The notes under the pieces were generated by a model. The model was given only the letters and a program-made list of their open reading frames with translations. It did not search any database and was not told the origin of the DNA. A DNA stretch of 59,098 nt from an uncultured Christensenellaceae bacterium. GTDB lineage: Bacteria; Bacillota; Clostridia; Christensenellales; UBA3700. The stretch is taken from NCBI GenBank assembly GCA_944376205.1, contig CALWBV010000010.1, positions 1 through 59,098 of the forward strand, given 5' to 3'. Shown piece after piece: positions 2,263-47,191 of the stretch (position 1 is its first letter; every line of letters begins with the position of its first letter). Position numbers and translations under genes: made by a program.

Positions 2263-5200
2263 TTAACTGTTGAAAAGGAAGTAGCCGATAATACCCAAAA
2301 CAATGGCGATTATTATTACCGAAACTATGATTGTCGCTACCGTAATTCTCTTGAATATACCTATGGAAATACCGAATACTATTGCCAAAAGAACAAGTAG
2401 TGCCATAAATATTCCGAAAGCTATCCAAGCCGTAAGATCGTTTTTGATAGTCATCACTGCCATTGCTATCAAAGTAAGGATAAAGATTATAAATACGATG
2501 ACCGAAACTGTCGTAGACATATAAGACACAAACAACAGATTGAATCCTACATATGCAAAAGTTGCCACAGGTATGGTCAGCGAGTTTCCGAATACTACCC
2601 AGCTTTGTTTGCCGTGAGAAACGATTGAATAAAGATTGCCTGCACTTGCTATTACAAACAATATGGTCATGACTAAACCTGTGCCATCAACATAATAAAT
2701 TCCCGATACAGTGAATGCGTCCAACACTATAAGCATAGCCGTATTTATTATCTGCGTCGTAAAGGCTATACTGATATATTTCTTATTCTGTCCGAATTTG
2801 ATCATGTAGACAAGTTGGAGAATTACAAAGTAAGCCGTCGAAATATACATTGCGACAGAATTAAGACTGTCTACCATTGCTCCTCCCCAGAATGTAGATC
2901 CGATAGTCGCATAAGCAAACGCAAACGCACTGAACGCAAGAGTAAGCAAATAAATGAATATCCTTACGCCTATATTACCCGACTTTGCGATAATCTCAAC
3001 TCTCTTTGCTTTTTTATGCATTTGAGAGATCTGTTCGTCTTCCTCGAGCCTCTTGAGATAATCTACGAATTCACTCTCCTTGCAAATAAAGAGATCGTTT
3101 ACTTTGTCGGAAGGAATAAAGTCCTTTTTCTTTTTGAGAAGCGACTTGTACTTGCGGTTCTTTTTGAGCATTTCCTGCTTGTTCTGAACCATCATGTAAG
3201 TCTCTATATTCTCGGTCTCGACTTCGCAGAGTTTGCTGAAATCCTCGTCGTCCTCGATATTGTTTTTGCAAAGGATGAGTTCTACGGTGTTTATCGCATG
3301 ATATTTTGCGTGCAATCTTCTCCAGTAAAGTTCTCCGTCGAGGGCGTTTTCCTTGATGGCATAGGTATAGAATTGTATTGCCTGCTCGTATTTTCTTCTT
3401 ATGAGCATAAGGTCAGCCATATACTTGAGTCGTTCGCACATGAATACCTTGTTGTCCATCTTGATGTACTTGAGGATATTGTAGTAAACATCGGTAAGCT
3501 CTGCTATGCTGTTCTTGCTGTCAGTATCTGCGATAAGGTTGATTATCTCGTTGGTAACGAGTTTGATGCAGTAATCGTATTGACTCAAGAAAATACTCTT
3601 ATAGTCTATCTTGAATCTCGAAATGCTGGCAAAGTCGATAGATTCGTTTTCTTCTACGTTATACTCTGCAAGGAGGTTGTAGTAGAGGTCCTCCTGTGCG
3701 TTGTCGATATAGAACTTACACTGCGATTCGCTTTTCCATTCAGTCTCGTCTTGTTTACAGTATTTGAATATATCTTCAAGCTCTTTGATAAAGCCTTCGA
3801 ACTTATTCTTTTGAGCAGCTTTTATCAAAGCGTAAATGATATAGTTGGACTCGTCGTAAACGTTATCGTTACGCTTCGTAAAGTCATTCTGCTTGTCTGC
3901 ATGTATGAAGTTGAGAGTACTCTTACGCTTGGTGCGGATGTCCTGCAACGCACTCTCTTTGATATGATACTTTGAGACGAGTTTGAGGAATCTTATATTG
4001 TTGTCGCCGGGTATAAAGTCCAACGCTTTGTCAAAGAATGCATCGCTCTTGTCAAAGGCATTGATCTTCATCATATATACGCCCGTACTTATCTCGTATG
4101 CGACAAACTCGTCTACGGCATTTTCGTCAAGCGTCTTTTGCAGATATTCTTTGAGTGCGACGATTTCGTCATAAGAATAAATATGTTTTTTCGAGTTTAA
4201 CGAAAGTATCGCATCGAATATCTTATACTTGAATTCACTTTCGGTGAGTTTGTTGCCGTTCACCTCGAATTTGCTGTAAGAATAAGATATAACTATTTTG
4301 AGCAAATCAATGATTTTCTGCTTGATCTTACCCTGACCGCTTTTGTACATATGCTCAACGCCCGCACGCAATGTATTGGCAAATAAGCTATTGTATTGTT
4401 TAGCTTTTTTACGGTCGGAGTTGGCAAGAAGATCGTCGATATCTTTTATGTCGGATATAGAATACAGATCAACGAGATTATTGTCGGACAAAGTGGATTT
4501 GATTTCTAATCTTATTCTGTTGAAAAGATATATGTCATCCTTTTGATCTATTTCGCCGATTTTTGCATTGATAAGCGCAGCCGAATCGTATCTCTTGAAT
4601 TCCAAAAGTTTATCTATTATGGTAGCACATTCTTCTATATATCTGTCTGCGCCGTCGTTCGCAACGGTGGCAAGATATACCTCGGTCAAAGAATCAAGAT
4701 TTTTGTTGCCTTTTTCGATATAGCCAAAGATCTCCTTCAAGACCATACTCATTGCCTTGGCTCTCTGTTCGATATTGTAAGCGACTATCTTCGAATAGAA
4801 TTTTATAGCTTGCTGAACGTTACCGTTTTTGAAGCTGTCTGCAATAGCGTCCAAAAACATATTGGCACATTCGCTCATTTCGCTTTGCGAACAGTTCTTC
4901 GCCAATCCGTCAAAATGGTCGAACAGTTCGAATTTTGAACTCTTAAGTGCAAATTCAACGGGATCTTTTGCATTTACCGAACTCATCATAAGTCCCATAT
5001 GGGCTTCTGCATTATCTCCCTTGCTAAGCGCCGACTGATAGTATCCCGTCGCAATTTTGAATCTTCCTTTTTTGAGCGCTTCGCTTGCTATCTTGAGAAG
5101 CTTTGCTACGTCAAGAGAAGTTTCTTCCTGTTCCTGCGTACCGATTTCTCTTATCGTTATAGCGCCTGCTACGGCTTGCGTCTTATCGGCTTTTACGCCC

Positions 5201-6222
5201 GACTGCGAACCGAATTGTTTCTTTTCGATTTTTTCGCCTTTGATTTTGGTCTGCTTGACGCTCTGTACGTTGAAAAGTTCTATTCTTTCGTTACCGTTCC
5301 GATACATCTTGAGTTCATCCATGATGTTTTTGATGATGTTCAGAAGGTTTTCCGACGCTTTGAACTTGCTCATATCGAAAGCCTGCTTGTTTTCTATGAG
5401 CGAAAGAGGTATTTCCTTTGCGTCGAATTTGTCGCTGTCGTATGCAACGATAAGCGAATTTCTGTGCTTGGCACCGGAGTTGAGTTGATTTTGCCATCTC
5501 ACCCACTCGTTTCTTATCCAAGTAGCGTTATAATATTCGCTGTTCTGCGCATAAACTATCATAACTTTAGCCGTACGCAAAGCGTTGTAGATATAAGGTT
5601 CGTACTCCTCACCGGCTATATTACTCAAACTTACACGGCTGTAAAATACTTTATAGCCTGCGTCACGCAAGAAGTCGTACAAGTCCTGCATCTTTTCGCT
5701 GTCCTTGGTACGCTTGTTGTTTTCATCGGTCTCTTTGTAGCTCAAGAATATATCGAAAGGCTGTTGTTTTTTGACGATCTCGTTCCAATAATTTCTTATC
5801 TTATCGATATCCTGCGCCATTTTTTCATAACAAGCCTTGATTTCGGCAGGAGCGCCGAGACACGCTTTTTTGTAATCCTTGTCGTCGCTGAACGCAGTGG
5901 GCATTGCATAGCAAGTAGGAACTCTCTTGCGTGAGCCCTTTCTCTTGTCCACGACAAAAACTATACCGTTGCGCGCAAGCGCAAGTCCCATATGTCCTTC
6001 GTAGCTGTTTTCGTTGAGAGAAAGAATGTCCTCAAAACTGATTTGCGCCTGTGCGATATCTCCCTTACGCAACAATTCGTAGGCGGAAAAAAGACGCATT
6101 CCCTCCTCTGAATTCGACAGTGAATCCTCGTATATCGAGTCACAGTATTTACACTTGAGCTGTCCCACTCCGTAATACTCGAGCTCACCGCCGCAATGCA
6201 TACAAATGTGTTGTTCTTTCAT
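2263..6222 (-). CDS. Zinc-ribbon/TIR protein with long helical region and about ten C-terminal membrane segments
   Basis: A 1319-residue protein. The order is: zinc ribbon (Cys 7, 10, 24, 27); a TPR-like helical segment (about 40-90); a TIR domain (about 154-290) with the opening FDIFLSY and the WIRNEW motif holding Glu239, the position equivalent to the catalytic glutamate of SARM1-type TIR NADases; a long alpha-helical repeat region (about 350-1070); and roughly ten hydrophobic segments from about 1080 to the end. Active bacterial TIR domains consume NAD or make cyclic ADP-ribose signals, so an NADase effector anchored in the membrane is inferred. The start is the ATG at 6222 with GGAG six bases upstream; a TTG at 6234 lies in the same frame but is less likely. 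It has its own strong promoter and is separated by a terminator from the 14-gene operon upstream. Confidence 0.85.
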   Translation of the reverse strand: MKEQHICMHCGGELEYYGVGQLKCKYCDSIYEDSLSNSEEGMRLFSAYELLRKGDIAQAQISFEDILSLNENSYEGHMGLALARNGIVFVVDKRKGSRKRVPTCYAMPTAFSDDKDYKKACLGAPAEIKACYEKMAQDIDKIRNYWNEIVKKQQPFDIFLSYKETDENNKRTKDSEKMQDLYDFLRDAGYKVFYSRVSLSNIAGEEYEPYIYNALRTAKVMIVYAQNSEYYNATWIRNEWVRWQNQLNSGAKHRNSLIVAYDSDKFDAKEIPLSLIENKQAFDMSKFKASENLLNIIKNIMDELKMYRNGNERIELFNVQSVKQTKIKGEKIEKKQFGSQSGVKADKTQAVAGAITIREIGTQEQEETSLDVAKLLKIASEALKKGRFKIATGYYQSALSKGDNAEAHMGLMMSSVNAKDPVEFALKSSKFELFDHFDGLAKNCSQSEMSECANMFLDAIADSFKNGNVQQAIKFYSKIVAYNIEQRAKAMSMVLKEIFGYIEKGNKNLDSLTEVYLATVANDGADRYIEECATIIDKLLEFKRYDSAALINAKIGEIDQKDDIYLFNRIRLEIKSTLSDNNLVDLYSISDIKDIDDLLANSDRKKAKQYNSLFANTLRAGVEHMYKSGQGKIKQKIIDLLKIVISYSYSKFEVNGNKLTESEFKYKIFDAILSLNSKKHIYSYDEIVALKEYLQKTLDENAVDEFVAYEISTGVYMMKINAFDKSDAFFDKALDFIPGDNNIRFLKLVSKYHIKESALQDIRTKRKSTLNFIHADKQNDFTKRNDNVYDESNYIIYALIKAAQKNKFEGFIKELEDIFKYCKQDETEWKSESQCKFYIDNAQEDLYYNLLAEYNVEENESIDFASISRFKIDYKSIFLSQYDYCIKLVTNEIINLIADTDSKNSIAELTDVYYNILKYIKMDNKVFMCERLKYMADLMLIRRKYEQAIQFYTYAIKENALDGELYWRRLHAKYHAINTVELILCKNNIEDDEDFSKLCEVETENIETYMMVQNKQEMLKKNRKYKSLLKKKKDFIPSDKVNDLFICKESEFVDYLKRLEEDEQISQMHKKAKRVEIIAKSGNIGVRIFIYLLTLAFSAFAFAYATIGSTFWGGAMVDSLNSVAMYISTAYFVILQLVYMIKFGQNKKYISIAFTTQIINTAMLIVLDAFTVSGIYYVDGTGLVMTILFVIASAGNLYSIVSHGKQSWVVFGNSLTIPVATFAYVGFNLLFVSYMSTTVSVIVFIIFILTLIAMAVMTIKNDLTAWIAFGIFMALLVLLAIVFGISIGIFKRITVATIIVSVIIIAIVLGIIGYFLFNS

Positions 6223-6262
6223 ACAATTCTCCAATAACTTTTTTCAACTTACAAACAAAAAA

Positions 6263-6291: not shown

Positions 6292-6320
6292 ATTATAACA
6301 AAGCGCCGTGTTTGTGTCAA
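6292..6320 (-). promoter_or_regulatory. Consensus promoter of the large TIR gene
   Basis: Read on the minus strand: TTGACA (6315-6320), 17-bp spacer, TATAAT (6292-6297), a perfect housekeeping sigma consensus. It gives a 5' UTR of about 60 bases before the ATG at 6222. Confidence 0.85.
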
Positions 6321-6507: not shown

Positions 6508-7947
6508 TCAGTCGTTGACTTGCGGTTTGACTATAGTTATCTCCGGCATCTTCTTGCCCGAGAATTCGCTGTCCATAAGTCCGAGCTGTTTCTTGATGAT
6601 ACCTCTCATGTTTATTGCGGGATTGAGACAATATTTTTCAAACAAATCGGTATCGACGTCCTCGGGTTTTGTCCAATTGGGGAAAAGCAATTTGATGTAT
6701 GCGCAACAAATTCTCTTTACCGCCGTAACGTCTCTGGTATCGGCTCCGTCCTTGATTTTAATCAATGCATCTACTATGCTGCGAGGAATAATATCCTCTC
6801 TTAAAGCATGCATGATTTCCGCAAAATATTCCGTATTGAGCGCCCAGTCGTTGATCTTTTTATCCTCGCTCATTCTGGGTATCTTCCAACCTTCTATGAA
6901 GCCGTGGAAACGGTCGATAAGCGCAGAATCTCCGAATACTTCGGGAAGTTTGCTGAGCATATTGCAATCGGTGTTCATATTTTCTTCGGAGATGTTTCCG
7001 AGCAATATTACGCCGGCATCGCCCTTGCCTTCTTTTACGCCTACGGTATATACGCCGCTTTCGAGATAGCCCTTCATAGCGCCCTGCATTTCGTTGATGT
7101 CGCCGAATTTTATTGTAGCGACTTCGTCAAGCGCAACGTAATCGTAATTGCTTACGAGACCTTCCTGCTTGATCTGCATATCGTAAAACATCTTGGCTCT
7201 CGTCATAATACCACCCGACGCAAGCCAACCGAATTTGCTTATCTTGGAAAATACGTACGATTTGCCCGTACCCTTGGGAGCAAGCTCTATGAGATTGAGT
7301 CTTTTTTCCACAAACGGCAAAAGTCTCGTCAAAAGATAGATCTTTTCTTCTTCACTCTTGAATCCGGCGGGGTTGTAGTCGATAGCTCCCAGCAACAGGT
7401 CAATCCACTCGTGTATATCAAAATATTCTCTGCCCTTTTTATAGTAATCGAGATCTGTCTTGTAGGGTCTGAAGTCAACAAAATTCTTGATTGAAATTTT
7501 GCCTACTTTCTTACTGTCTACCACAAAACGCAATTCGACGACACCCCATATAGGTCCGTTGGACGAGAGGAAAGGCGCCTTGCATTTTGCCCATACGTCG
7601 AGAGGAAAAGTCGTCTCGTTGTAACCCACTCCGAAATCGGGAAGTTCAAAAGATATTATTCCCGTACGCACGTCCTGTTTTGCCTGAATTTTACATATAA
7701 ATTTGACGGTTTCGCCTTCGGTAACCATCTTATCGAGCAAAGTAGGCCAATCTGCTTTTCGGGGAATCGTCTGTTTTATAAGCTGCGATATGTATGTAAC
7801 GTTTATCGATCCGTCTTCGTTGGCATACTTTCTTAAAAACCAGTCTCTGATAAATGACGGTATTGCAAGTATGGCAAACTGTTCGATCGAAGCGTCTTTT
7901 TTTACGCACATTCCGCCGAAATACTTTTGTACTTTTGTCTCTTCCAT
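6508..7947 (-). CDS. BrxL-like AAA+ ATPase lacking the Lon protease domain
   Basis: A 479-residue protein with the signature blocks of the BREX BrxL/TIGR02688 type: Walker A APKGTGKS (223-230), Walker B YVALDEV (270-276), the GDINEMQGAMKGYLESG block (282-298), LLGNIS, and a likely arginine finger in LIDRFHGF (342-350). Full BrxL is around 680 residues with a C-terminal Lon-like domain; here the protein ends about 130 residues after that finger and has no such domain, matching the short TIGR02688-like form. BrxL itself forms DNA-binding hexameric rings. No other BREX gene (PglX, PglZ, BrxC) is in the window. It is the last gene of the operon, 19 bp after the protease gene. The role in this context is unknown; a ring ATPase acting on a phage or stress target is inference. 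Confidence 0.85.
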   Translation of the reverse strand: MEETKVQKYFGGMCVKKDASIEQFAILAIPSFIRDWFLRKYANEDGSINVTYISQLIKQTIPRKADWPTLLDKMVTEGETVKFICKIQAKQDVRTGIISFELPDFGVGYNETTFPLDVWAKCKAPFLSSNGPIWGVVELRFVVDSKKVGKISIKNFVDFRPYKTDLDYYKKGREYFDIHEWIDLLLGAIDYNPAGFKSEEEKIYLLTRLLPFVEKRLNLIELAPKGTGKSYVFSKISKFGWLASGGIMTRAKMFYDMQIKQEGLVSNYDYVALDEVATIKFGDINEMQGAMKGYLESGVYTVGVKEGKGDAGVILLGNISEENMNTDCNMLSKLPEVFGDSALIDRFHGFIEGWKIPRMSEDKKINDWALNTEYFAEIMHALREDIIPRSIVDALIKIKDGADTRDVTAVKRICCAYIKLLFPNWTKPEDVDTDLFEKYCLNPAINMRGIIKKQLGLMDSEFSGKKMPEITIVKPQVND

Positions 7948-7966: not shown

Positions 7967-8728
7967 TTATTTTACTCTGGACAACGTCCTGTCTATGAAA
8001 TATTGAACGATATCCACGGGAATACCGAAATTCATGCCTTCGGCTTCGTCGATACCCGATACTACGACAGCGATGACCTCGCCGTTTTCGTTGAATATAG
8101 GTCCGCCCGAATTGCCGCCGTTGATAGCGCAGTCGGTCATGAGTCTGTCCTGTCCGTTGACGCTGCGACGTTTGTCGCTGACGATACCGCTGGTAATACA
8201 AGTACCGAGACCCAACGAATTGCCTATGACGAATACACGCTGTCCGTTGCGGATACTCTTGCTGTCTGCAAGTTTTACTTTTTTCATTCCTGCGGGAACA
8301 CTGCGGAGTTTAACAAGCGCAAGGTCTTCTCCAACACTGGGATTTGGCGAACCTACCGCCTTTACTTCGAGATCTACAGTCCTTCCGCATATGTAACCTT
8401 TGAGATTCTGAAGCAAGTTGCCGTTTTCCGTAACGACGTGCGCATTTGTTATGGCATAACCGTCGTCGTCAATCATGAATCCCGATCCGCTGAATCTGGA
8501 TTTTGCGTTGTTTCCCGTTATCTCCATAACGCTGTTTATATTAGCGTCGAATACGTCTTCGCCTTTTTCTGCGTAATTAACTATATTGGTGCGTGAATTC
8601 ACGTTGCTCGCAGGCTTCTCGTCCTCTTTTTCAGCGATATTGTCGCAAAAAGCACACTTATACATTTCTTTGCCGTTGATAGTTACGACCTTGTATTCTC
8701 CGCCGCAAATATTACAAATTTTTCTCAT
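7967..8728 (-). CDS. Trypsin-like (HtrA/Deg-type) serine protease with N-terminal zinc ribbon
   Basis: A 253-residue protein without signal peptide or membrane segment, so probably cytoplasmic, unlike classical HtrA. A zinc ribbon (Cys 5, 8, 25, 28) is followed by a linker and a complete chymotrypsin-fold protease: His97 (TNAHVV), Asp135 (GEDLALVKL) and Ser207 (GGNSGGP). There is no PDZ domain. Stand-alone trypsin-like peptidases without PDZ are recurrent parts of prokaryotic conflict systems, where they cut a partner to activate it; that role is inferred. It sits 10 bp downstream of the Vps4-like ATPase and shares the zinc-ribbon head with both TIR proteins and with the SPFH tail, which suggests a common docking logic. 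Confidence 0.9.
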   Translation of the reverse strand: MRKICNICGGEYKVVTINGKEMYKCAFCDNIAEKEDEKPASNVNSRTNIVNYAEKGEDVFDANINSVMEITGNNAKSRFSGSGFMIDDDGYAITNAHVVTENGNLLQNLKGYICGRTVDLEVKAVGSPNPSVGEDLALVKLRSVPAGMKKVKLADSKSIRNGQRVFVIGNSLGLGTCITSGIVSDKRRSVNGQDRLMTDCAINGGNSGGPIFNENGEVIAVVVSGIDEAEGMNFGIPVDIVQYFIDRTLSRVK

Positions 8729-8738
8729 CGTTCACTCC

Positions 8739-10223
8739 TTAAATACCGAAATCGTTTTCTTCAATACCCTGTACGAAAGTCAGTTCTTTTTCTCCTATCT
8801 TATGCGAATCCCCGAAAATCTCTACCGTATATTTACCGGCGGCGATATCCAGTTTTTCGCTCTTCCAGTTTCTTATGTTGCCGCTGCAAGCGTAATTTTT
8901 ACCGTTGATCTTGACTGATACCATAGAAAATTTACGGTCTACGAAAAACTCTATCTGAGGTTTTTCGCAAGGTTGCAGTTTTATAACGTCGCTTGCAAAC
9001 TCTATCACGATATCTTCCTTTTTATCAGGCACCTGGGGTTTTTCCGCAGGGGCAGGATTTACGGGTGCGGTAGGCACATCGGGTGCTTTTGCCGCCGCCG
9101 AAGGGTCTATTCCCGCATATCTCTCAAACTCGACGATTTCTCTCTTGCTTACCGAAGGTCTGACCTGTCTGAAAGCGTTGATGAGATCGTTTCTGGTGAT
9201 TTTAACGATAGAGTCGCTCTGAATTGCTTTGAGCAAAGGGTCTTCTTTGGCTCTGTCGCAAATTTCCTCTATATCGGCACCGCTGTATCCGTCGCTTATT
9301 CTTACAAGTTCGTCAATGCTTACGCTGTCGTCCAATGGAGCGTTTTTAAGAAATTTATTCAACAAAAATCTGCGTGCTTCGCCGTCGGGCAAAGGTACGT
9401 ATATTTTTTGAGAAAATCTTCCCGAACGCATAGCTGCGCCGTCGATATCCCACGGTCTGTTTGTCGCACCCAACAAAAGAAGATTGGGGTTGCGTCCCAC
9501 AAATCCGTCAATCTGTTGCAAAAACTCGTTGACTCGCTTGTCGTTGTGGATATCTTCGCCTCTCTTGCCTATGAGCGAATCCATTTCGTCGATAAAAATT
9601 ATAGCAAGTTTTTCTTTTCTCGCCGTCTCGAACAGAGAGTTGATGTTCTTTTCGGAATCACCTACCCACTTGCTGACGATATCCGAACCTTTTATGGCAA
9701 AAAACGTTGCCCCTACTTCGCATGCGATAGCCTTGGCAATCATAGTCTTACCTGTTCCGGGAGGGCCGTACAACAACACGCCGCCGCCCGTCTTTTTGCC
9801 GTAAGCCGCATATTTTTCGGGATACTTGAGAGGATTTATCATTCTAGTAGTAATTGCTTTTTTGACATCCTCGAGACCGGCTATATCCGAAAAATGTATA
9901 TTGGGAATCTCCGCCGCCGCCCACTGCTTGCCTTCGTCGTCGTTTTTTGACGTCTGACTTTGCGCAGGGGAAGTGCGTCTGTCCTTGGAATTTTCCATCT
10001 CCGCTTCGAGGTTTTCGGCAATGTCTATAAGTCTCTTTGCCCTCTCGATTCTGGCTTTTTTTAGTTCGGGAGAAGAAATTTTCGCCAGCTTGAGCATGGT
10101 CTCCGCCGCCAGCATGTAATTTCTTTTTGCCAAAGCGACGTTATTCTCTTGCTGTGCCTTTTTTGCATTGGCATAATACGCTTCGAATTTGTCTGTCAAT
10201 ATCGAAATATTAAGATTGTCCAT
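8739..10223 (-). CDS. Vps4-like AAA ATPase with MIT-like N-terminus and C-terminal beta domain
   Basis: A 494-residue protein. Residues 1-80 form a three-helix segment with the alternation typical of MIT domains, the ESCRT-III binding module of Vps4. A linker (80-105) leads to a meiotic-clade AAA domain: Walker A GPPGTGKT (153-160), pore loop SKWVGDSEK (184-192), Walker B IIFIDEMD (208-215), LGATNRPWDID (251-260), arginine fingers near 266-269. The pore loop and the block around it read almost like eukaryotic Vps4. A Pro-rich linker (380-400) is followed by about 90 beta-rich residues not found in Vps4. Start: ATG preceded by GGAGAG. It lies directly downstream of the Snf7-like gene, so it probably extracts or disassembles that polymer. 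A katanin/spastin-type role on another substrate is the alternative. Confidence 0.9.
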   Translation of the reverse strand: MDNLNISILTDKFEAYYANAKKAQQENNVALAKRNYMLAAETMLKLAKISSPELKKARIERAKRLIDIAENLEAEMENSKDRRTSPAQSQTSKNDDEGKQWAAAEIPNIHFSDIAGLEDVKKAITTRMINPLKYPEKYAAYGKKTGGGVLLYGPPGTGKTMIAKAIACEVGATFFAIKGSDIVSKWVGDSEKNINSLFETARKEKLAIIFIDEMDSLIGKRGEDIHNDKRVNEFLQQIDGFVGRNPNLLLLGATNRPWDIDGAAMRSGRFSQKIYVPLPDGEARRFLLNKFLKNAPLDDSVSIDELVRISDGYSGADIEEICDRAKEDPLLKAIQSDSIVKITRNDLINAFRQVRPSVSKREIVEFERYAGIDPSAAAKAPDVPTAPVNPAPAEKPQVPDKKEDIVIEFASDVIKLQPCEKPQIEFFVDRKFSMVSVKINGKNYACSGNIRNWKSEKLDIAAGKYTVEIFGDSHKIGEKELTFVQGIEENDFGI

Positions 10224-10336
10224 ATTCTCTCCGTATGTATTTTTCTTGACCGTAAAATTTTAATGACTCTCAATAGCGGTTCTATAAGAATCGTTTCTTT
10301 GACCGCCTGCGTGAAAATCGTCAATTACAGCACAGC

Positions 10337-10366
10337 GACGGACAACGTATTTTACACGTCTCCGTC
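10337..10366 (-). other. Hairpin in the ESCRT-III/Vps4 intergenic gap
   Basis: In the unusually long 170-bp gap between the Snf7-like gene and the ATPase gene. Arms GACGGA and ACGT pair with ACGT and TCCGTC around a 7-base loop, without a T run. No consensus promoter is visible here. It could be an RNA processing or partial attenuation site that sets the ratio of filament protein to ATPase. Confidence 0.5.
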
Positions 10367-10393
10367 ATCCGACTGCATAAAATAACAGTTAAA

Positions 10394-10981
10394 TCAGATA
10401 TCGCTTTCGAGTTTTTTGCGCAGACTTGCCAATTCTTTTTCGATAGCGTCGTCGCTGTCTGTGTCAAGTCCAACTTGTTTGTCGATAAGATCTTTTATCT
10501 CGGTATCGTCGATAGAATCCGTGGAGCCCGAAGCCGAACGGAAACTGTCCTGACTCGTCTCCATGAACATATCCATCTGCTCAGCCTGATGTTCTGCCTT
10601 GCCCATTGCGACTTCGAATTGTTTCTGAACTTCGATAAATTCTTTTTCGTCGGCCAGTTTTGCCATCTCCTTGCTGAGGACGCTCATTCCGCCCAAAAAT
10701 TCTTTGGTCATCATGGTCATATCCTTCATCTGCGAGGTGATTTCGAAGTTGAGCAACATTTCCTGCGCTCTTCTCTGTTGCAACAAGGTCATCTTGTAGC
10801 CTGTCAATGCGAGATTGTATTGAGCTTCGAGACCGTTTTTCTTGGCGATTTTAGCCTTTTCGATCATGGCTTTTTTCTGTTCTTCCAAGGTATTGATCTG
10901 TTTGTTCATCGCATTGATAGTGCGCTTTACAAGCATTTTTTTCTCTATTTCTTTTTCCTGTTTACTCTTAAAAAGTCCCAT
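10394..10981 (-). CDS. ESCRT-III (Snf7/CHMP)-like protein with MIM1-like tail
   Basis: A 195-residue all-helical protein laid out like a CHMP1/Vps2 subunit: a basic N-terminus (MGLFKSK), a long alpha-1/alpha-2 hairpin (about 18-85) with the KNG turn at 48-50, a Met-rich segment holding GGMSVLSKEM (98-106), then QKQFEVAM and a Met/Gln-rich helix (to about 145). A flexible Ser/Asp-rich stretch follows, then an acidic LIDKQVGLD helix, and last ELASLRKKLE (183-192), which resembles the MIT-interacting motif 1 of eukaryotic ESCRT-III except that the Arg/Leu order is swapped. ESCRT-III proteins polymerise on membranes; known bacterial members are PspA and Vipp1, which lack this tail. Its start is one base after the stop of the preceding Snf7-like gene, and it is followed by the Vps4-like ATPase. 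Confidence 0.85.
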   Translation of the reverse strand: MGLFKSKQEKEIEKKMLVKRTINAMNKQINTLEEQKKAMIEKAKIAKKNGLEAQYNLALTGYKMTLLQQRRAQEMLLNFEITSQMKDMTMMTKEFLGGMSVLSKEMAKLADEKEFIEVQKQFEVAMGKAEHQAEQMDMFMETSQDSFRSASGSTDSIDDTEIKDLIDKQVGLDTDSDDAIEKELASLRKKLESDI

Positions 10982-10982
10982 A

Positions 10983-11582
10983 TTAGTCTCCGATATTAGC
11001 CTGTTTTTCTCTCTCGTTATTAGAGCTCGTATCTACGCCGAGTTCGCTGTTGACCTCATCGGCATTCTCGAATATAGCGAGAAGCTGATCGTCCTGCTCG
11101 TTGACTCCGTAGATCTGCTCGTTTTCCACATAACCGCTCTGTATCTCGTTCCAGATATCGTCGGCGGAAGTAAGTACGTTTTCGCTCTTTACCTTGGTAT
11201 TGAGCGCCTTGTTGAGGAATTTGGCGAGACCTTTCTGGTCGCCGAGAAGATTGCCGAGAGAAACCTTGCCTGTGTTGGCAAAGAAACTGTTGTCGTCTAT
11301 TGCCGATTTGAGTCTCTTCATCAATCTGATATTGTAAAGAAGATACATTCCGCGCTTCACGTCTTCATTGCATTCTTCTTTGAGATTCATGATCTTTTTT
11401 GCATAAAACTTTTTGAGTTCGTTGTTTTTTTCTACCTTGCCCTTTTCAAGCAAATCTTCGATATCTTTTGTTTTCTCTACAATACCCGTCTCGATATCCT
11501 GTTGTTGCTTTTCAAGATTGCAAATAGCGTCGACAACGTCCTCTCTTTTGAGTTTTTGATATTTACTCTTAAAAGGCCACAT
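10983..11582 (-). CDS. Second Snf7-like helical protein
   Basis: A 199-residue acidic helical protein. It opens with the same basic MWPFKSK-type start as its neighbour (MGLFKSK) and has a long hairpin at about 13-100, including EDLLEKGKVEKNNELKK and a KRGMYLLYNIRLMKRL helix, which fits the Snf7 alpha-1/alpha-2 core. The second half is acidic (ADDIWNEIQSGYVENEQ) and ends without an obvious MIM1. This would suit a nucleating or partner subunit, as Vps20/Snf7 differ from Vps2/Vps24; that is inference. AGGAG precedes the ATG, and the stop is one base from the next start, implying coupled synthesis with the 195-residue paralogue. No TM segment. Confidence 0.72.
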   Translation of the reverse strand: MWPFKSKYQKLKREDVVDAICNLEKQQQDIETGIVEKTKDIEDLLEKGKVEKNNELKKFYAKKIMNLKEECNEDVKRGMYLLYNIRLMKRLKSAIDDNSFFANTGKVSLGNLLGDQKGLAKFLNKALNTKVKSENVLTSADDIWNEIQSGYVENEQIYGVNEQDDQLLAIFENADEVNSELGVDTSSNNEREKQANIGD

Positions 11583-11600
11583 GCTAGCTACTCCTGTATA

Positions 11601-11942
11601 TTATTTGTTGGTGTAAACCTTGCGTTGAGCAAGCAACAGCTTGATATCCTTGATAGTGCTCTCTGCTTTTGCAAGCGCCTTTTCCTTGTCGCCCTTGGAA
11701 AGTTCGATCTTCAAATCGTCGAGATTGTGCGAGATTTTCTCGTCTATCTTCTTTACTTCGTCAGCGCTGGAAGGCGTGAGATATTTCAAGGTATCCTGCA
11801 ACTTAAGCAATTCCTGACGCATTGCTTCGTTGTCCTCTGCCATAACGAGAAGGATCTCTATGGTCTGGGTATTTTTGTTTGTATCTTCTCTGCTCTTGAG
11901 AATCTTTTCTTTATTGCTTAATTTTTTTCTGAAAAAACACAT
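11601..11942 (-). CDS. Small helical protein of the ESCRT-like operon
   Basis: A 113-residue protein, strongly charged and predicted all-helical by eye. It starts MCFFRKK, echoing the short aromatic/basic N-termini of the two Snf7-like proteins downstream, which in ESCRT-III insert into membranes. The helix around 25-50 and the helix KIDEKISHNLDDLKIELSKGDKEKALAKAE (about 65-94) could form a hairpin. No known family is recognised. AAGGAG precedes the ATG. It lies between the SPFH gene and the Snf7-like pair, so it may be a short third filament subunit or adaptor. A low-information coiled-coil protein of unrelated origin remains possible. Confidence 0.65.
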   Translation of the reverse strand: MCFFRKKLSNKEKILKSREDTNKNTQTIEILLVMAEDNEAMRQELLKLQDTLKYLTPSSADEVKKIDEKISHNLDDLKIELSKGDKEKALAKAESTIKDIKLLLAQRKVYTNK

Positions 11943-11977
11943 AGTCTTAACTCCTTATTCTGCGATTTTATTTATGA

Positions 11978-13012
11978 TTACAATTTGGTTCCGCAACCTG
12001 CGCAGAACATAGCGTCGGAAGGATTTTCCTTCTTGCAGTTGGGACAAACTTTCTTTACGTCGCCAAGTTGTTTACCGCAACCCATACAGAATTTGTCGTT
12101 TTGTCCGTAAGGTCTGCCGCAATTAGGGCAATATCTGCCTGTGGATTTGCTGCCGCCCTCTTTAGGCTCCCAACCGATAATTTTGCAAACTTCGAGATAT
12201 TTTGCATAATCTTTTTGTTTGAGTTCGAGCAAATACTGTTCTCTTTCCCAGTTTTTATCGTCGAGTCTTTCTGCCTCTGCCTTTGCGGCTTCCTCGCGCT
12301 TTTCATCCTCGAGCTTTTTCTTCTCTTCCTCTGCCTTCTGCTTTTTAGCCTGTCTTGCATTTTCAATTGCCTGAATGCTTTCGGGAGAAATGAGTACGTT
12401 TGCAAGCGTAAACGAGAACATTCTCAAGCCGTATTCTTCCTCAAACATCTTGGACAATACTTTGAGTACGGATTGAGCAATTTCATCCTTGTGCTCGCTC
12501 ATTCTGTCATAGGAGAGATTCTTTTCTCTCATGGTCTGTGCGATAGCAGGTTCGATTTTGCTCATCATTCTCATGCTGAGTCTCTCTTTGAGTTCGTCAA
12601 CGTTGAAATTGCCCTTTACGCCGATAAGCTCGAGATATGCCTTTCTGGGATTGCAAATCTGCACCTCGAATTCGCCGTGTGCACCCACTTTGATAGGCAC
12701 GTCCGTCTCGGTGTCTCTCAAGTCAAACTGCGTTCTCGTACCCCAGTTTACCTTGAGCTTTGCGGTCTTTGACATATAGATGACCTCTACGGTAATGTTG
12801 GGGTCGTGCTTTTTCTTTTTGCTGTCAAAAATATCGTAACTTCCGCTGTTGAGGGTATCCATCATCATACCGTCTTTAAGCAAAATAGCGTTGTGTGTTT
12901 CGGGCACGATAATCTTTGCGTCTGCCGGCAAATCGGTTACGCTGAATCTCTTGAAAAGTTCTTCGTTGTTGCCGTCGTAAGTAATAACCTTGTTGATTTC
13001 TTTCTTTGCCAT
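11978..13012 (-). CDS. SPFH/band-7 protein with tandem C-terminal zinc ribbons (YdjI-like)
   Basis: A 344-residue protein. Residues 20-215 form an SPFH domain of the type often annotated as virion-core-like, followed by a charged coiled coil (215-265) rich in Lys/Glu/Ala, then two zinc ribbons (Cys 295, 298, 309, 312 and 323, 326, 337, 340). There is no TM segment. The same architecture occurs in Bacillus subtilis YdjI, encoded next to pspA (ydjF), where it takes part in placing the ESCRT-III-family protein PspA at the membrane. Its position beside two Snf7-like genes repeats that association and supports the ESCRT-III assignment. Start: ATG with GAGGAG upstream. Likely role: membrane-domain scaffold or recruiter for the filament. 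Confidence 0.88.
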   Translation of the reverse strand: MAKKEINKVITYDGNNEELFKRFSVTDLPADAKIIVPETHNAILLKDGMMMDTLNSGSYDIFDSKKKKHDPNITVEVIYMSKTAKLKVNWGTRTQFDLRDTETDVPIKVGAHGEFEVQICNPRKAYLELIGVKGNFNVDELKERLSMRMMSKIEPAIAQTMREKNLSYDRMSEHKDEIAQSVLKVLSKMFEEEYGLRMFSFTLANVLISPESIQAIENARQAKKQKAEEEKKKLEDEKREEAAKAEAERLDDKNWEREQYLLELKQKDYAKYLEVCKIIGWEPKEGGSKSTGRYCPNCGRPYGQNDKFCMGCGKQLGDVKKVCPNCKKENPSDAMFCAGCGTKL

Positions 13013-15145: not shown

Positions 15146-16903
15146 TTAAATTTCGTCACTCATGTTTTCGTAAATTCCGTCATATTCGGACGCTCTGTCG
15201 ATTACGTTGCGAATAGAATCGAAGACTTTCTGATACGAACGGAATTGCGTCAGATACAAGTTGTATTCGGCAAGGACCTGCCTCAATATGTTCTTTATTT
15301 GAGGTATCCTTCTTGCGTAATATTTGTCTATACTCTTTCTTTTGAGTACGCAGTAGACGATTATCGCTACTCCTGCCACCACACCTACGGCGGAAGCAAT
15401 CATCATATAGTAGCTCAAGAAAAATGCCGCTACGAATATCGCCACCGAAAGACCGAAGCACAAATATGCCGGCCACTGCTTTACTTTCGCTTTGTCTTTT
15501 TGCGCCTTATCGAGATAGAATCTTTCTATATCCTGCTCGGTACGTCCGCTGTCTTTTATATCGACTTTTGCAGAATAATCCTCAATCTTCACGTCGACGT
15601 TATTGAGACGGATATCTTTGTATTCACGCTCTATTTTGTCTACGACTTTTTGGTTGAGCGGCAAAAGATATTTGTAAAGCATAAGTCTCACGTCGTCGCT
15701 GATATCCTTGTCGTTGAGATTTTTGAGCCAGTCCTGAATCTGTTTGCCGAGGTTGATATCCTCGCTCTTTTTCTTTGTTTCCGCCTTGTAGATTTTACGA
15801 GCCGTATCTACGTCTCCTCTCTGTCTGATAATCTCTTCCTGAAGTTCGACTTTATCGAAAATTTCCTTTTCCTTTTCGCAAGGAGCGTCGATGACGTCCG
15901 CCATCTGTTTTTCGATAAGCGCTTTTCTGGTATATTTGGATTTTTTGAGCGACTCGGCTATATTTGCGAGAATATTCTCCGAATTGCATGCAAAATCCAT
16001 ATTCTTTTTCAATATATAGAAATTAACGCAATATTGTTTCAACAGATTAAACTCTTCGCATTTGTCCGTTTGAGTCAACAGCGCATCGTAACCCTCTCTT
16101 ATAACTCTCATCATAAGCTTTCTGTTGTCAAAAGAATTGACTGATTTGGAAAGACTCTTTTCGACAAAAGTTTTGATAGTTTTTTTGATTTTGGGAGAGA
16201 CGTTTTCCGCCCTGTCTGCCATAATCGAGAAAAACAGTAAAAATACCTTGGATTCCTTGCCCTTCTGCGGCAAACTCTTGTATTCTTCCAACCACTTGAG
16301 CGCTTCGTTTTCCTGCTGCGTATTCAAGCTGTGCAGAAAATAGAATATTATCGTATTTCTCTTATCGAGTTCCAAGGCATGCTCAAGCGCCCTTTCCGAC
16401 GCCTTTTTGTCGCCGTTTTTTGCACTGGAAAGACTTATCATAACGGAAGATAGCCAATAGTCCTGCGTCTGATAGTATTGTTTTTCGACGAGCTTGGTCA
16501 TCTTGTCGTTGCCTACGACTTCCTTTTCGAGATTGGTGAGCAATCCGGACATAAGATTTCTTGCCGCATTGAATTCGCCGTATTCGCTGAATCTTTTTTC
16601 GTCAAGTTCTCTTATGGTCTTGTATGCGCTTTCCATCTGCTTATAGCGATTGTAAAGAATATTGATTTCTTCCTGAATAATAAGCGCTTCGCCTACGTTT
16701 TTATCAGAACTGTTGATTATTTTATCGCATCTTTGGAGATTTGACGTAACTTTGTCTCTGTATGAGTCAAGCTCATATTTCGCATTGCTTACGCCGTTTT
16801 CGATAGTCCTTATCTCCGATCTCAATTCGGAGTTGATAGCTTGAAGACGACTTTCTATACTTTCATATTCTCTTAACTCTCTTTTAAGTGATTCGTTACT
16901 CAT
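15146..16903 (-). CDS. Membrane-anchored coiled-coil/TPR-like protein, paralogue 1
   Basis: A 585-residue protein of no recognised family. An N-terminal coiled coil (1-70) leads to a helical region with the block QDYWLSSVMISL (about 150-161) and TPR-like helices, then two adjacent TM segments (about 478-520) and a cytosolic helical tail ending in acidic residues. The same architecture and the block (N/S/Q)DYWL(S/A) recur in the proteins at 19129-20724 and 20721-22493, so three diverged copies lie in this operon. The ATG overlaps the stop of the AAA gene upstream (ATGA), indicating translational coupling with that ATPase. A possible job is a membrane platform or client for the ATPase; this is inference from position only. 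Confidence 0.75.
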   Translation of the reverse strand: MSNESLKRELREYESIESRLQAINSELRSEIRTIENGVSNAKYELDSYRDKVTSNLQRCDKIINSSDKNVGEALIIQEEINILYNRYKQMESAYKTIRELDEKRFSEYGEFNAARNLMSGLLTNLEKEVVGNDKMTKLVEKQYYQTQDYWLSSVMISLSSAKNGDKKASERALEHALELDKRNTIIFYFLHSLNTQQENEALKWLEEYKSLPQKGKESKVFLLFFSIMADRAENVSPKIKKTIKTFVEKSLSKSVNSFDNRKLMMRVIREGYDALLTQTDKCEEFNLLKQYCVNFYILKKNMDFACNSENILANIAESLKKSKYTRKALIEKQMADVIDAPCEKEKEIFDKVELQEEIIRQRGDVDTARKIYKAETKKKSEDINLGKQIQDWLKNLNDKDISDDVRLMLYKYLLPLNQKVVDKIEREYKDIRLNNVDVKIEDYSAKVDIKDSGRTEQDIERFYLDKAQKDKAKVKQWPAYLCFGLSVAIFVAAFFLSYYMMIASAVGVVAGVAIIVYCVLKRKSIDKYYARRIPQIKNILRQVLAEYNLYLTQFRSYQKVFDSIRNVIDRASEYDGIYENMSDEI

Positions 16904-18399
16904 TTTTCCTCCCTGGATGCCGAACGTGCATGCTCACTGCCCCATTTTCTGATTTTTTCAACCTTTTCGGGATTAACTTTTGTAATCGGTATCACCGACT
17001 TGAATACGTCGGCTATGGATTTTTTGTTTACGGCGCTTATGCCGTTGATGAGCGCCGTATGCGCTACGTCCTTGACGGCATATTCGATGTCAGAATAAGA
17101 AAAGCCTTCGCTTATTTTGACAAGTGCGTCTATATCTATCTCATTTGCGCCCATATGCAGACATCTGTCGGCATATTGCAAAATAGCCGTTTTGCGTTCG
17201 TCTGCATTAGGAAGATCTACGAAAAAGATATCCGAAAATCTTCCCTTTCTGAACAATTCGTAAGGGAGCGCATCGATATTGTTGGCGGTAGCCACGAGAA
17301 AAACTCTGCTCTTGGTCTCTTGCAACCAGAACAAAAATTGTCCTAGCACACGCTTACTCGTATCGTTGCCGTCATCGGAAACAGCCATAGCTTTTTCTAT
17401 CTCGTCAACCCACATTACGCACGGGGAAACGTTGTCGATATACTTGAGCGCTTCGGTCATATTTCTCTCGCTTTCTCCCACCCATTTGTCATAGACGCTT
17501 CCCGCATCGAAACGGTAAAGAGGAAGATCCCACGCCTTTGCGACCATTTTTGCCGAGAAAGATTTTCCGCAGCCCGGCACTCCGACAAGCAATATGCCCT
17601 TGGGGGTACTCAAATCGTAATTGAGCAATTGTTCTTCAGTCGCAAAAAACACTTTTTTGCGTTCTTCGAGCCACTCTTTGAGATTTTCAAGTCCCGATAC
17701 TTTGATGTTTCTGTCTACGTAAACTTCCTGTACGCAAGGCAATGCGCTGTAAAGTCTGCTCTTTTGACTCGTCAATTCGTAAAGATGCTTTGCCTCGAGT
17801 CCTTTGTTGTTTATGAGCGCTCCTGCCAGTATATTGTCTATCTGTATCTCCGTAAAACCTCTCAACAAAGTCGCTGCGGTAAGGATATCGTTATCCGACC
17901 AGCGAATAGGGTATTTGCCTTTGTATCTGTCGATAAACTTGCGGATAAGTTCAATACGCTCCTGCGTGTCGGGATAGTCTAAAGTCGTAAGCATGCCGAA
18001 TTGCAAAAGTCTGTTCCACACTCTGTCGGGCGTAATAAGTATGAGCGTACCGCAGTTTTCCTTTGCCTGATACAACACGTTGAGCACTTCCTGACTGTAA
18101 AGATTGCCGTCGCTTATTCTCTTGGTGTCTCCTATCGCAAAAGTAGCGTTTCTGTTCTTTTTGAAGACGTCGCAAACATACGGCATAGGGTCGCTGTCCA
18201 CGTTTTTATACGCCTTGTCGTTGAAAATGCTGACCTGTTTTGCGTCCGTATAGTAATAAACAGGTATGCGCATTTCTTTGGAAAGTTCCCCAAGCATACG
18301 CTCTACCCTTTCTCTCTCCGACGATACAACGACGATGAGAGGCGTACGGGCTACAATAAAATTACGTATTTCTTCTTTTGTGGCTTTATAATTACTCAT
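16900..18399 (-). CDS. Ycf46-like AAA ATPase
   Basis: A 499-residue protein with two halves. Residues 1-215 resemble a degenerate RecA/AAA-like domain without a Walker A, as in Ycf46-family proteins. Residues 230-480 are a complete AAA module: Walker A GVPGCGKS (273-280), pore loop DKWVGESERN (304-313), Walker B VMWVDEIE (328-335), LVATANNIDALP, and GRF with the arginine finger (386-388). Ycf46-type ATPases occur in cyanobacteria and various bacteria; their substrates are largely unknown. This is the second AAA of the operon and clearly different from the Vps4-like one. It is coupled by 4-bp overlaps on both sides, to a small helical protein upstream and to a membrane-anchored protein downstream, which makes those its best candidate partners. 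Confidence 0.85.
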   Translation of the reverse strand: MSNYKATKEEIRNFIVARTPLIVVVSSERERVERMLGELSKEMRIPVYYYTDAKQVSIFNDKAYKNVDSDPMPYVCDVFKKNRNATFAIGDTKRISDGNLYSQEVLNVLYQAKENCGTLILITPDRVWNRLLQFGMLTTLDYPDTQERIELIRKFIDRYKGKYPIRWSDNDILTAATLLRGFTEIQIDNILAGALINNKGLEAKHLYELTSQKSRLYSALPCVQEVYVDRNIKVSGLENLKEWLEERKKVFFATEEQLLNYDLSTPKGILLVGVPGCGKSFSAKMVAKAWDLPLYRFDAGSVYDKWVGESERNMTEALKYIDNVSPCVMWVDEIEKAMAVSDDGNDTSKRVLGQFLFWLQETKSRVFLVATANNIDALPYELFRKGRFSDIFFVDLPNADERKTAILQYADRCLHMGANEIDIDALVKISEGFSYSDIEYAVKDVAHTALINGISAVNKKSIADVFKSVIPITKVNPEKVEKIRKWGSEHARSASREEK

Positions 18400-22521: not shown

Positions 22522-22550
22522 ATTATATCCTATAAGTTATGCCATGTCAA
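22522..22550 (-). promoter_or_regulatory. Consensus promoter of the ESCRT-like operon
   Basis: On the minus strand: TTGACA (22545-22550), 17-bp spacer, TATAAT (22522-22527). It matches the housekeeping consensus perfectly and has the same design as the promoter of the large TIR gene. No operator-like palindrome overlaps it, so basal expression without induction is plausible. Confidence 0.85.
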
Positions 22551-44284: not shown

Positions 44285-44306
44285 AATTCCACCTATAATT
44301 TATATA

Positions 44307-44873: not shown

Positions 44874-44904
44874 TATTTTTCCTATCCATCCTTATATGTC
44901 ATCA

Positions 44905-44935
44905 GGTATGTCGGCAATTAACTTGTCGGCATACC
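44905..44935. other. Hairpin between the two paralogous helical genes
   Basis: GGTATG/CATACC arms with an internal loop made of two TCGG copies and an inner CAA/TTG pair, in a 77-bp gap. It occupies the same relative place as the hairpin at 10337-10366: between a filament-type gene and the next gene of the operon. Confidence 0.45.
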
Positions 44936-44950
44936 TATTTGCCGCATAAA

Positions 44951-45697: not shown

Positions 45698-45714
45698 TTT
45701 TTTATCTCCTTTTT

Positions 45715-47190: not shown

Positions 47191-47191
47191 C

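What the first reader, a model, noticed from the sequence alone, without database searches (positions are those of the whole stretch)
8739..13012. Bacterial ESCRT-III/Vps4-like module with an SPFH scaffold
Five consecutive genes encode a YdjI-like SPFH/zinc-ribbon protein, a small helical protein, two Snf7-like proteins (one with a CHMP1/Vps2-like layout) and a MIT-AAA ATPase whose pore loop reads almost as in eukaryotic Vps4. Known bacterial ESCRT-III relatives (PspA, Vipp1) work without a Vps4. A full filament-plus-disassembly-ATPase set in a Firmicutes-type genome would be a bacterial ESCRT-like machine. The SPFH neighbour repeats the PspA-YdjI association of Bacillus subtilis, which supports the assignment independently.
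Basis: partly seen in the sequence, partly recalled or inferred. Interest (0 to 1): 0.96.

Follow-up and report, generated by a model that had tools for sequence, protein, structure and literature searches.

The report
Bacterial ESCRT-III/Vps4-like membrane-remodelling operon
A patchily distributed gene cluster of uncultured Clostridia-type bacteria encodes, side by side, a relative of the Snf7/ESCRT-III filament proteins, a second protein with a predicted ESCRT-III-like fold, an ATPase that groups with Vps4, and an SPFH protein (likely a membrane scaffold), so these bacteria likely own an ATP-driven membrane-remodelling machine of a kind that a recent survey described as confined to archaea and eukaryotes.

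Summary
On the minus strand at 8739-13012 lie SPFH/zinc-ribbon, 113-aa, 199-aa, 195-aa and ATPase genes. The five genes recur in this order in 72 of 80 fetched loci; a Vps4-like AAA core is in 78 of 80. The window's 195-aa protein has no Pfam hit of its own, but its counterpart in an equivalent operon (41% identical) passes Pfam's Snf7 cut-off (34.0 vs 27.3 bits). All three above-cut-off Snf7 hits in 247 genomes of the order are members of this family. The 199-aa protein is ESCRT-III-like only by predicted fold (top five Foldseek hits are archaeal CdvB2, none significant). The ATPase has a weakly supported MIT domain and groups with Vps4/CdvC/spastin (98/97.7), away from p97 and FtsH. The module is accessory: 24 of 247 genomes of the order, 9 of 46 of the family. 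Its window neighbours are TIR, trypsin-like and BrxL genes. Divergent copies fuse the Snf7-like domain to FtsK or RuvB-type motors. Best reading: a bacterial ESCRT-III/Vps4-type remodelling module, probably serving envelope defence. Membrane binding, polymerisation and disassembly are inferred.

The parts
11978..13012 (-). SPFH (Band 7) protein with C-terminal double zinc ribbon, 344 aa; likely membrane scaffold/recruiter
   Evidence: Pfam Band_7_1 3.4e-19, Zn_Ribbon_1, DZR; two or more CxxC pairs near the C-terminus in 74 of 75 family members; first gene of the unit in 72 of 80 loci
11601..11942 (-). 113-aa helical protein, role unknown; conserved between SPFH and the 199-aa gene
   Evidence: found in 73 of 80 loci; no significant family match
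10983..11582 (-). 199-aa ESCRT-III-like protein (by predicted fold), second candidate filament subunit
10394..10981 (-). 195-aa Snf7/ESCRT-III-family protein, main candidate filament subunit, with MIM1-like C-terminal helix
   Evidence: 41%-identical counterpart in an equivalent operon has Pfam Snf7 34.0 bits, cut-off 27.3; AF2 helices 7-48, 52-107, 112-149, 159-194; relaxed MIM1-like tail motif in 77 of 81 members vs 0.18% of shuffled tails
8739..10223 (-). Vps4/CdvC-like AAA ATPase, 494 aa: N-terminal MIT-like domain (about 1-76), AAA core (about 105-370), C-terminal DUF7862-like domain (below Pfam cut-off)
   Evidence: NCBIfam CdvC model aligned 8-369 to 6-364 of 370, 221 bits, cut-off 650; tree; MIT; Vps4_C match in 49 of 49 single-AAA members at E<=1, window just below cut-off; DUF7862 23.2 bits, cut-off 27
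7967..8728 (-). zinc-ribbon trypsin/HtrA-like protease, 253 aa; possible effector or processing protease
   Evidence: Pfam Trypsin_2 1e-28; homologues detected in 24 of 80 loci, GxSGG in 24 of 24; 10 nt from the ATPase gene
6508..7947 (-). BrxL-like Lon-type ATPase, 479 aa
   Evidence: NCBIfam BrxL 408.9 bits, cut-off 329.3; in 5 of 80 loci and in the G306 operon L107
13082..15118 (-). zinc-ribbon/TIR protein, 678 aa, with W-x3-E (WVKNEW); possible NADase effector
   Evidence: Pfam TIR_2 1.4e-10; motif read from the sequence
15146..16903 (-). 585-aa coiled-coil-type protein, same operon
   Evidence: ORF; homologue beside a divergent copy of the module in L059 (L130 is the same contig by length and coordinates)
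16900..18399 (-). second AAA ATPase, 499 aa, same operon
   Evidence: Pfam AAA 1.1e-27; homologue beside the module in L059; very long branch in the tree
22522..22550 (-). perfect sigma-70-type promoter (TTGACA-17-TATAAT) ahead of the 22493 start; possible promoter of the operon
   Evidence: consensus scan, 12 of 12 matches; the number of promoter-like sites in the region is not above shuffles (25 vs 29.9)
2263..6234 (-). second zinc-ribbon/TIR/TPR protein, 1323 aa, with its own perfect consensus promoter at 6320-6292
   Evidence: Pfam TIR_2 2.4e-08; promoter

Best explanation
Window 8739-13012 is a conserved five-gene unit whose 195-aa protein belongs by homology to the Snf7/ESCRT-III family and whose ATPase groups with Vps4/CdvC, so it is predicted to work as a bacterial ESCRT-III/Vps4-type membrane-remodelling machine. 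Inferred steps: the SPFH/zinc-ribbon protein marks or recruits to a membrane site, as YdjI does for PspA; the 195- and 199-aa proteins, many of which carry a phenylalanine next to basic residues at the N-terminus (57 of 81 and 75 of 78), assemble there as a composite filament; the C-terminal MIM1-like helix of the 195-aa subunit binds the ATPase's MIT-like domain; the ATPase threads subunits through its SKWVG pore loop and remodels or takes apart the polymer. Because the module is accessory and in the window stands with TIR, trypsin-like and BrxL genes, its probable use is to repair or wall off membrane damage (for example at phage entry) and to set off those effectors when repair fails. Shown: gene content, conserved order, homology of the 195-aa family to Snf7 through a counterpart in an equivalent operon, grouping of the ATPase, patchy distribution. 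Predicted: folds, MIT, MIM1-like tail. Untested: membrane binding, polymerisation, disassembly, defence.
For: Five-gene order in 72 of 80 loci; Vps4-like AAA core in 78 of 80. Counterpart of the 195-aa protein in the G306 operon TIR-type-SPFH-113-199-195-ATPase-BrxL, 41% identical to the window's, scores 34.0 bits for Pfam Snf7, cut-off 27.3. 3 of 247 genomes of the order have an above-cut-off Snf7 hit and all 3 hits are members of this family; in the control of that search Sulfolobus (a CdvB bearer, recalled) rings, below the cut-off. 21 of 110 homologues found with the wide profile carry PF03357 in the database's own annotation. Folds. MIT. The MIT-like part is kept even where the motor changes: 23 of 80 loci carry it on an AAA of another type, 21 of these followed by a Vps4-like AAA. 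AAA tree. Relaxed MIM1-like tail in 77 of 81 members against 0.18% of shuffled tails. Divergent paralogues: 7 of 9 fetched stretches have an ATPase matching the Vps4-like profile, in L103 and L105 only weakly. SPFH precedents: YdjI is required to localise PspA (PMC8581546, abstract); archaeal Meth_adaptin ESCRT loci carry an SPFH protein with coiled coil and zinc ribbon (PMC10936438, passages).
Against: The window's own 195-aa protein hits no Pfam family and a Snf7 scan of its genome is empty. Profiles A1-A3 found no ESCRT-III chain in the PDB; the wider A6 found CHMP2A only at E 3.6, below unrelated helical proteins. No Foldseek match is below 0.001 for either model, the first row for the 195-aa model is not an ESCRT-III protein, and VIA-align ranks BAR-type and other helical proteins above ESCRT-III for it. 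The MIT match is thin: 3 of 41 members hit Pfam MIT, fewer than DUF1771 (9) and TPR_8 (5), the window's own fragment hits nothing, and against yeast Vps4's MIT it does no better than shuffles. The NCBIfam CDC48 model scores slightly above CdvC (232.8 vs 221.3 bits), p97 is the best PDB hit (two-domain score), and p97 D2 as sole partner is not rejected (p-AU 0.072). In L057 and L061 no Vps4-like AAA core is seen (L061 runs off its contig), and the ATPases of L103 and L105 carry another lid, AAA_lid_6. Canonical MIM1 occurs in 0 of 81 tails. hhalign gives no usable link between the 195- and 199-aa families. L108 and L109 have no Vps4-profile neighbour.
Confidence: 0.7

Rival explanations
1. A PSP-like system: the helical proteins form a static membrane-stabilising scaffold recruited by the SPFH protein, and the ATPase is a CDC48-type unfoldase acting on other clients rather than on the scaffold.
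For: SPFH-PspA link known in B. subtilis; CDC48 model scores slightly above CdvC; p97 best in the PDB; canonical MIM1 in 0 of 81.
Against: The 195-aa family hits Snf7, not PspA: PspA_IM30 is not among the 25 families shown for A2 (of 69) or A6 (of 48), and none of the 13 PF04012 hits in the order lies at a module position. The ATPase groups with Vps4/CdvC/spastin and stays with the 195-aa gene.
Confidence: 0.13
2. A phage-defence unfoldase-protease system of the IetAS kind: the AAA feeds a partner to the trypsin-like protease or TIR effector, and the helical proteins are only coiled-coil sensors or adaptors.
For: PADLOC IetA profile 140.5 bits on the ATPase; trypsin-like protease next door in the window and found in 24 of 80 loci; patchy distribution.
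Against: The curated NCBIfam IteA cut-off is far from met (121.5 vs 510 bits), and the IetA profiles also match the 499-aa AAA (106.1 bits). The protease was not found in 56 of 80 loci (some are short; 31 of the 41 long ones also lack it) while the ESCRT-like genes are constant. The 195-aa family passes Snf7.
Confidence: 0.1
3. A Cdv-type cell-division machine that replaces or assists FtsZ.
For: A CdvC-like ATPase with a Snf7-family partner is the archaeal division pair; a Snf7-FtsK fusion exists in L101.
Against: The genome has FtsZ; no match to the 195-aa profile in 37 of 46 genomes of the family. CdvA was not searched for.
Confidence: 0.03

Closest known systems
Archaeal ESCRT/Cdv systems (CdvB-CdvC; Meth_adaptin-type loci with SPFH/zinc-ribbon protein, PMC10936438)
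   Same: Snf7-family protein encoded just ahead of a MIT-AAA Vps4-type ATPase; SPFH protein with zinc ribbon nearby, as in Meth_adaptin loci
   Different: Bacterial hosts; CdvC equivalog cut-off not met (221 vs 650 bits); non-canonical MIM1; TIR/trypsin/BrxL neighbours; no winged-helix or adaptin domain above cut-off in the ten proteins; FtsZ present
Bacterial PspA/Vipp1 with YdjI (B. subtilis PspA-YdjGHI)
   Same: ESCRT-III-superfamily protein with an SPFH partner
   Different: Here Snf7-type rather than PspA-type, two candidate subunits, and a dedicated Vps4-like ATPase
PspA/Snf7-AAA+ associations in bacteria noted by PMC11237479 (passages seen)
   Same: They report some bacterial PspA with a two-AAA protein, and TM-bearing Snf7 homologues with an AAA+ ATPase; two-AAA ATPases occur in 21 of our 80 loci too
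   Different: In the passages seen, bacterial Vps4-like ATPases have snf7 'displaced' by a TPR/6TM gene; a conserved SPFH-113-199-195-Vps4 unit is not described there
IetAS anti-phage system
   Same: AAA ATPase next to a serine protease (IetAS make-up recalled)
   Different: Family score far under the cut-off; ESCRT-III-like proteins are added

Membership tests
ESCRT-III (Pfam Snf7, PF03357) | Sequence match above the curated cut-off | tested here: inconclusive
   Window protein itself: no hit. Counterpart in an equivalent operon, 41% identical: 34.0 bits, cut-off 27.3. 19 of 73 A2 members match at E<=1, best 3.3e-4.
ESCRT-III | Predicted helix layout of the 195-aa protein (long hairpin, then further helices) | tested here: met
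   AF2 (pLDDT 70.5, pTM 0.45) helices 7-48, 52-107, 112-149, 159-194. Layout only: 25 of 50 top Foldseek rows are ESCRT-III superfamily but none is significant, and VIA-align does not discriminate.
ESCRT-III | Fold, 199-aa protein | tested here: inconclusive
ESCRT-III | C-terminal MIM1 motif (D/E)xxLxxRLxxL(K/R) (recalled consensus) | tested here: not met
   Canonical pattern 0 of 81; relaxed pattern without the Arg 77 of 81, 0.18% in shuffled tails. The RuvB-fused paralogue in L103 reads ESEIDRRLANLR, close to canonical.
ESCRT-III | Polymerises on membranes | not testable with these tools
   Needs biochemistry
Vps4/CdvC | N-terminal MIT domain | tested here: inconclusive
   PDB: 2mpk (chitin synthase; MIT domain, recalled) first, E 0.0025; VPS4A 1yxr E 0.71. 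Pfam MIT in 3 of 41, best 1.1e-4, window fragment none. hhalign to three MITs P 8.7e-4, prob 23%, 36 columns. CdvC model aligned from residue 8.
Vps4/CdvC | AAA core in the meiotic clade | tested here: met
   98/97.7 support for one side with Vps4, CdvC and spastin against p97 D1, D2 and FtsH; sole pairing with p97 D2 p-AU 0.072; few reference rows.
Vps4/CdvC | Curated NCBIfam CdvC equivalog cut-off (650 bits) | tested here: not met
   221.3 bits
Vps4 | Vps4_C helix (PF09336) | tested here: inconclusive
   Window 20.3 bits vs cut-off 21.3; 49 of 49 single-AAA members match at E<=1, best 3.7e-8
PspA/IM30 (PF04012) | Sequence match | tested here: not met
   No hit at E<=0.001 in the own genome, which includes the module
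IetA/IteA anti-phage ATPase | NCBIfam cut-off 510 bits | tested here: not met
   121.5 bits

The most novel reading that the evidence does not exclude
Bacteria have true ESCRT systems: a Snf7-type composite filament, an SPFH recruiter and a MIT-Vps4 ATPase working as an accessory membrane-damage defence armed with TIR and protease effectors. The family has also radiated, keeping the MIT-like adaptor while swapping motors and forming Snf7-FtsK and Snf7-RuvB fusions that couple ESCRT-type polymers to DNA motors.
Probability: 0.45. Interest if true: 0.96.

Novelty: new variant of a known kind. Interest (0 to 1): 0.88.

Why it matters
[quoted passage not shown] A conserved bacterial Snf7-type/Vps4-type pair would contradict both and raises the question of transfer from archaea versus deep ancestry. 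It offers a small system, workable in laboratory bacteria, to test how a Vps4-type ATPase drives filaments, and a possible new link between membrane remodelling and bacterial immunity.

Tried and rejected

The first AAA tree, with the two long-branched window AAAs, left the family in a polytomy; these two rows were dropped. Alignments hold part of the loci, near-duplicates and short copies left out: A2 65 of 80 loci plus 7 database proteins and the window, A3 60 of 77 loci, A4 48 of 80 loci (single-AAA forms only; the two-AAA forms and the split L017 ATPase left out), A5 40 of these. Mutual exclusion with PspA could not be tested because PspA is nearly absent in the order (2 of 247 above cut-off). 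Cdv-type division is not favoured: FtsZ is present. A phage or plasmid origin found no support: no relative in viral contigs, no plasmid match.

An early count of 66 of 80 loci with a TIR protein overstates: it is homology across the zinc-ribbon/TPR/TIR region. W-x3-E followed by W or Y as first match is seen in 19 of 80 loci, and the two long members scanned show no Pfam TIR. The reading of W-x3-E as a TIR catalytic site is recalled. Of the nine PF03357 hits, four were matched to family loci; the other five (G395, G259, G378, G441, G304) were not examined. An ATPase count of 80 of 80 by phmmer was refined on re-checking: in L057 and L061 only the MIT-like part and another AAA type match. Literature searches for a bacterial ESCRT-III/Vps4 operon; the passages seen in four opened papers do not describe this unit. 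Only open-licence papers are held.


Full report
Observation. Pfam confirms Band_7_1 plus double zinc ribbon in the first and AAA plus AAA_lid_3 in the last; the three helical proteins have no significant hit. Intergenic gaps are 35, 18, 1 and 170 nt, and the tight spacing continues into a trypsin-like gene (10 nt) and BrxL (19 nt). A perfect TTGACA-17-TATAAT box at 22550-22522 precedes the 22493 start, and another precedes the 1323-aa TIR gene, though promoter-like sites as a whole are not more frequent than in shuffles; the core probably lies inside a long operon (22493 to 6508).

Conservation. A scan of species genomes with the 195-aa alignment gave 80 loci (the best 80 of 91), mostly titled as Clostridia or Clostridiales MAGs. 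An AAA protein matching the window's ATPase follows the 195-aa gene in 80 of 80, and the order SPFH-113-199-195-ATPase holds in 72 of 80, with TIR or other genes sometimes between the 195-aa and ATPase genes; the other 8 lack one or more genes or differ in order, some because the contig ends. Re-checking showed three kinds of ATPase. In 57 of 80 loci the match is to the MIT-like plus Vps4-like core. In 21 a longer protein has the MIT-like part, an AAA of another type and then a Vps4-like AAA. In 2 (L057, L061; the latter runs off its contig) only the MIT-like part and the other AAA are seen. So the MIT-like part is kept while the motor changes. Identity of the 195-aa proteins to the window's runs from about 50 to 85%. 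Among nine divergent stretches (L101-L109), 7 have an ATPase matching the Vps4-like profile, weakly in L103 (66 bits) and L105 (26 bits), whose ATPases carry another lid (AAA_lid_6); L108 and L109 have none.

ESCRT-III identity of the 195-aa protein. By its own sequence the window protein is silent in Pfam. Across 73 members the commonest Pfam match is Snf7 (19 members, best E 3.3e-4). The counterpart in genome G306, in an operon TIR-type-SPFH-113-199-195-ATPase-BrxL and 41% identical to the window protein, scores 34.0 bits, above the 27.3-bit cut-off. A PF03357 scan of 247 genomes of the order gave 9 genomes with hits; the 3 above the cut-off all fall on members of this family, a fourth hit too, and five were not examined. 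In that search's control Sulfolobus acidocaldarius (a CdvB bearer, recalled) rings but stays below the cut-off. The protein database annotates PF03357 in 21 of 110 homologues found with the wide profile. The AlphaFold2 model (mean pLDDT 70.5, pTM 0.45) has helices 7-48, 52-107, 112-149 and 159-194, the ESCRT-III arrangement. Foldseek fills 25 of its top 50 rows with CdvB, CHMP1B/IST1, CHMP2A-CHMP3, Asgard ESCRT-III, Vipp1 and PspA, but the first row is another helical protein and no E-value is under 0.09; VIA-align is not discriminating. PDB profile searches found no ESCRT-III chain with A1 or A2 and CHMP2A at E 3.6, aligned nearly end to end, with A6. A conserved C-terminal helix fits a relaxed MIM1 pattern in 77 of 81 members against 0.18% of shuffled tails, but the canonical Arg is missing: canonical MIM1 0 of 81.

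The ATPase. The NCBIfam CdvC model aligns over its whole length, residues 8-369 to 6-364 of 370, at 221 bits, far below its equivalog cut-off of 650; the CDC48 model scores 232.8 over the AAA part only. The first 77 residues as a profile find chitin synthase chain 2mpk (recalled as an MIT domain) first among PDB sequences, E 0.0025, and VPS4A 1yxr at E 0.71. In Pfam 3 of 41 members hit MIT, best 1.1e-4, fewer than hit DUF1771 (9) or TPR_8 (5), and the window's own fragment hits nothing. hhalign to three known MITs gives P 8.7e-4 (prob 23%, 36 columns), with the ESCRT-like profiles as negative controls; pairwise, the window fragment beats most shuffles against VPS4B and CdvC but not against yeast Vps4. 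A 30-row tree puts the family with Vps4, CdvC and spastin at 98/97.7 against p97 D1, D2 and FtsH; a sole union with p97 D2 is disfavoured but not rejected (p-AU 0.072) and the order among family, CdvC and Vps4/spastin is open. SKWxGx(A/S)E in the pore loop is found in 54 of 80 loci.

Setting and distribution. The module is accessory: 1 of 243 genomes sampled in the class, 24 of 247 in the order, 9 of 46 in the family. In three genomes of the same genus the neighbouring ECF-transporter block is conserved (65-75% identity) while no window module gene is found beside it; in one of the three (L128) the contig ends too soon to tell. The genome has FtsZ and no PspA hit. Neighbours in the window are two zinc-ribbon TIR proteins with the W-x3-E motif, a trypsin-like protease and BrxL. 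Across 80 loci, 24 have the protease (GxSGG in 24 of 24), 5 BrxL, and 66 a homologue of the zinc-ribbon/TPR/TIR protein, but W-x3-E with W or Y next is seen in only 19 and the two long members scanned show no Pfam TIR. A constant core with changing effector-type neighbours fits a conflict system; this is inference.

Divergent loci. L101 and L102 carry three 195-aa-type paralogues each. In L101 one is fused to an FtsK motor (10506-12419, FtsK_SpoIIIE 1.6e-45); L102 has a counterpart of like length (633 aa) that was not scanned. In L103 one is fused to a RuvB-like ATPase and its Snf7 part has E 2.4e-5. In L105 a gene next to the Snf7-like one joins a stretch that weakly matches the MIT part (15 bits) to RuvB. 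The fused paralogue in L103 has a near-canonical MIM1 (ESEIDRRLANLR).

Literature. [quoted passage not shown] PMC7615534 (passages) says bacteria lack a clear Vps4 homologue. PMC8281802 (passages) leaves open which ATPase serves PspA/Vipp1. PMC11237479 (passages) reports Vps4-like transfers to bacteria without snf7, and some PspA or TM-Snf7 genes with AAA+ ATPases, the closest precedent. PMC8581546 (abstract) shows YdjI localising PspA.

Verdict. A bacterial ESCRT-III/Vps4-type module is the best explanation (0.7). Sequence and genome evidence carry the homology of the 195-aa family and the ATPase; fold prediction carries the 199-aa protein; everything about membranes, polymers, disassembly and defence is inferred from the families.

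Noticed in passing
window 43142-58984 (-): Second operon: AAA ATPase (380 aa, weak Vps4_C), two helical-looking proteins that resemble each other by eye (188 and 248 aa), a 496-aa coiled-coil-type protein, a 1340-aa protein, an SNF2-like helicase and a 658-aa actin/Hsp70-like protein (by eye); possibly another ATPase-plus-helical-protein conflict module.
   Followed up: partly
80 loci (L057-L077, L079, L080): In 23 of 80 loci the MIT-like domain sits on an AAA of another type; in 21 of them a Vps4-like AAA follows in the same protein. The adaptor stays while the motor changes.
   Followed up: partly
L101 10506-12419; L102 8769-10670: Snf7-like N-terminal domain fused to an FtsK/SpoIIIE DNA-translocase motor in L101; a counterpart of like length in L102, not scanned.
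   Followed up: partly
L103 4966-6633; L105 5791-8325: Snf7-like domain fused to a RuvB-like ATPase in L103; in L105 a stretch weakly matching the MIT part joined to RuvB.
   Followed up: partly
L108 7224-9063; L109 8923-9504: 195-aa-type genes without a Vps4-like ATPase nearby; in L108 next to a RelA/SpoT-domain protein.
   Followed up: no
L002 2439-4553: ATPase gene of 704 aa with two full AAA domains, both of the good-scoring kind.
   Followed up: no
L024 11901-15710, L035 12698-16507 and similar proteins in other loci: About 1,270-aa zinc-ribbon/TPR-type proteins after the ATPase, homologous to the TIR proteins but without a Pfam TIR in the two scanned.
   Followed up: partly
window 22522-22550 and 6292-6320 (-): Two perfect 12-of-12 sigma-70 consensus promoters, ahead of the operon and of the 1323-aa TIR gene.
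   Followed up: no
window 16900-18399 and 15146-16903 (-): A second AAA (499 aa) and a 585-aa protein in the operon; homologues of both sit beside a divergent copy of the module in L059, which is the same contig as L130.
   Followed up: partly
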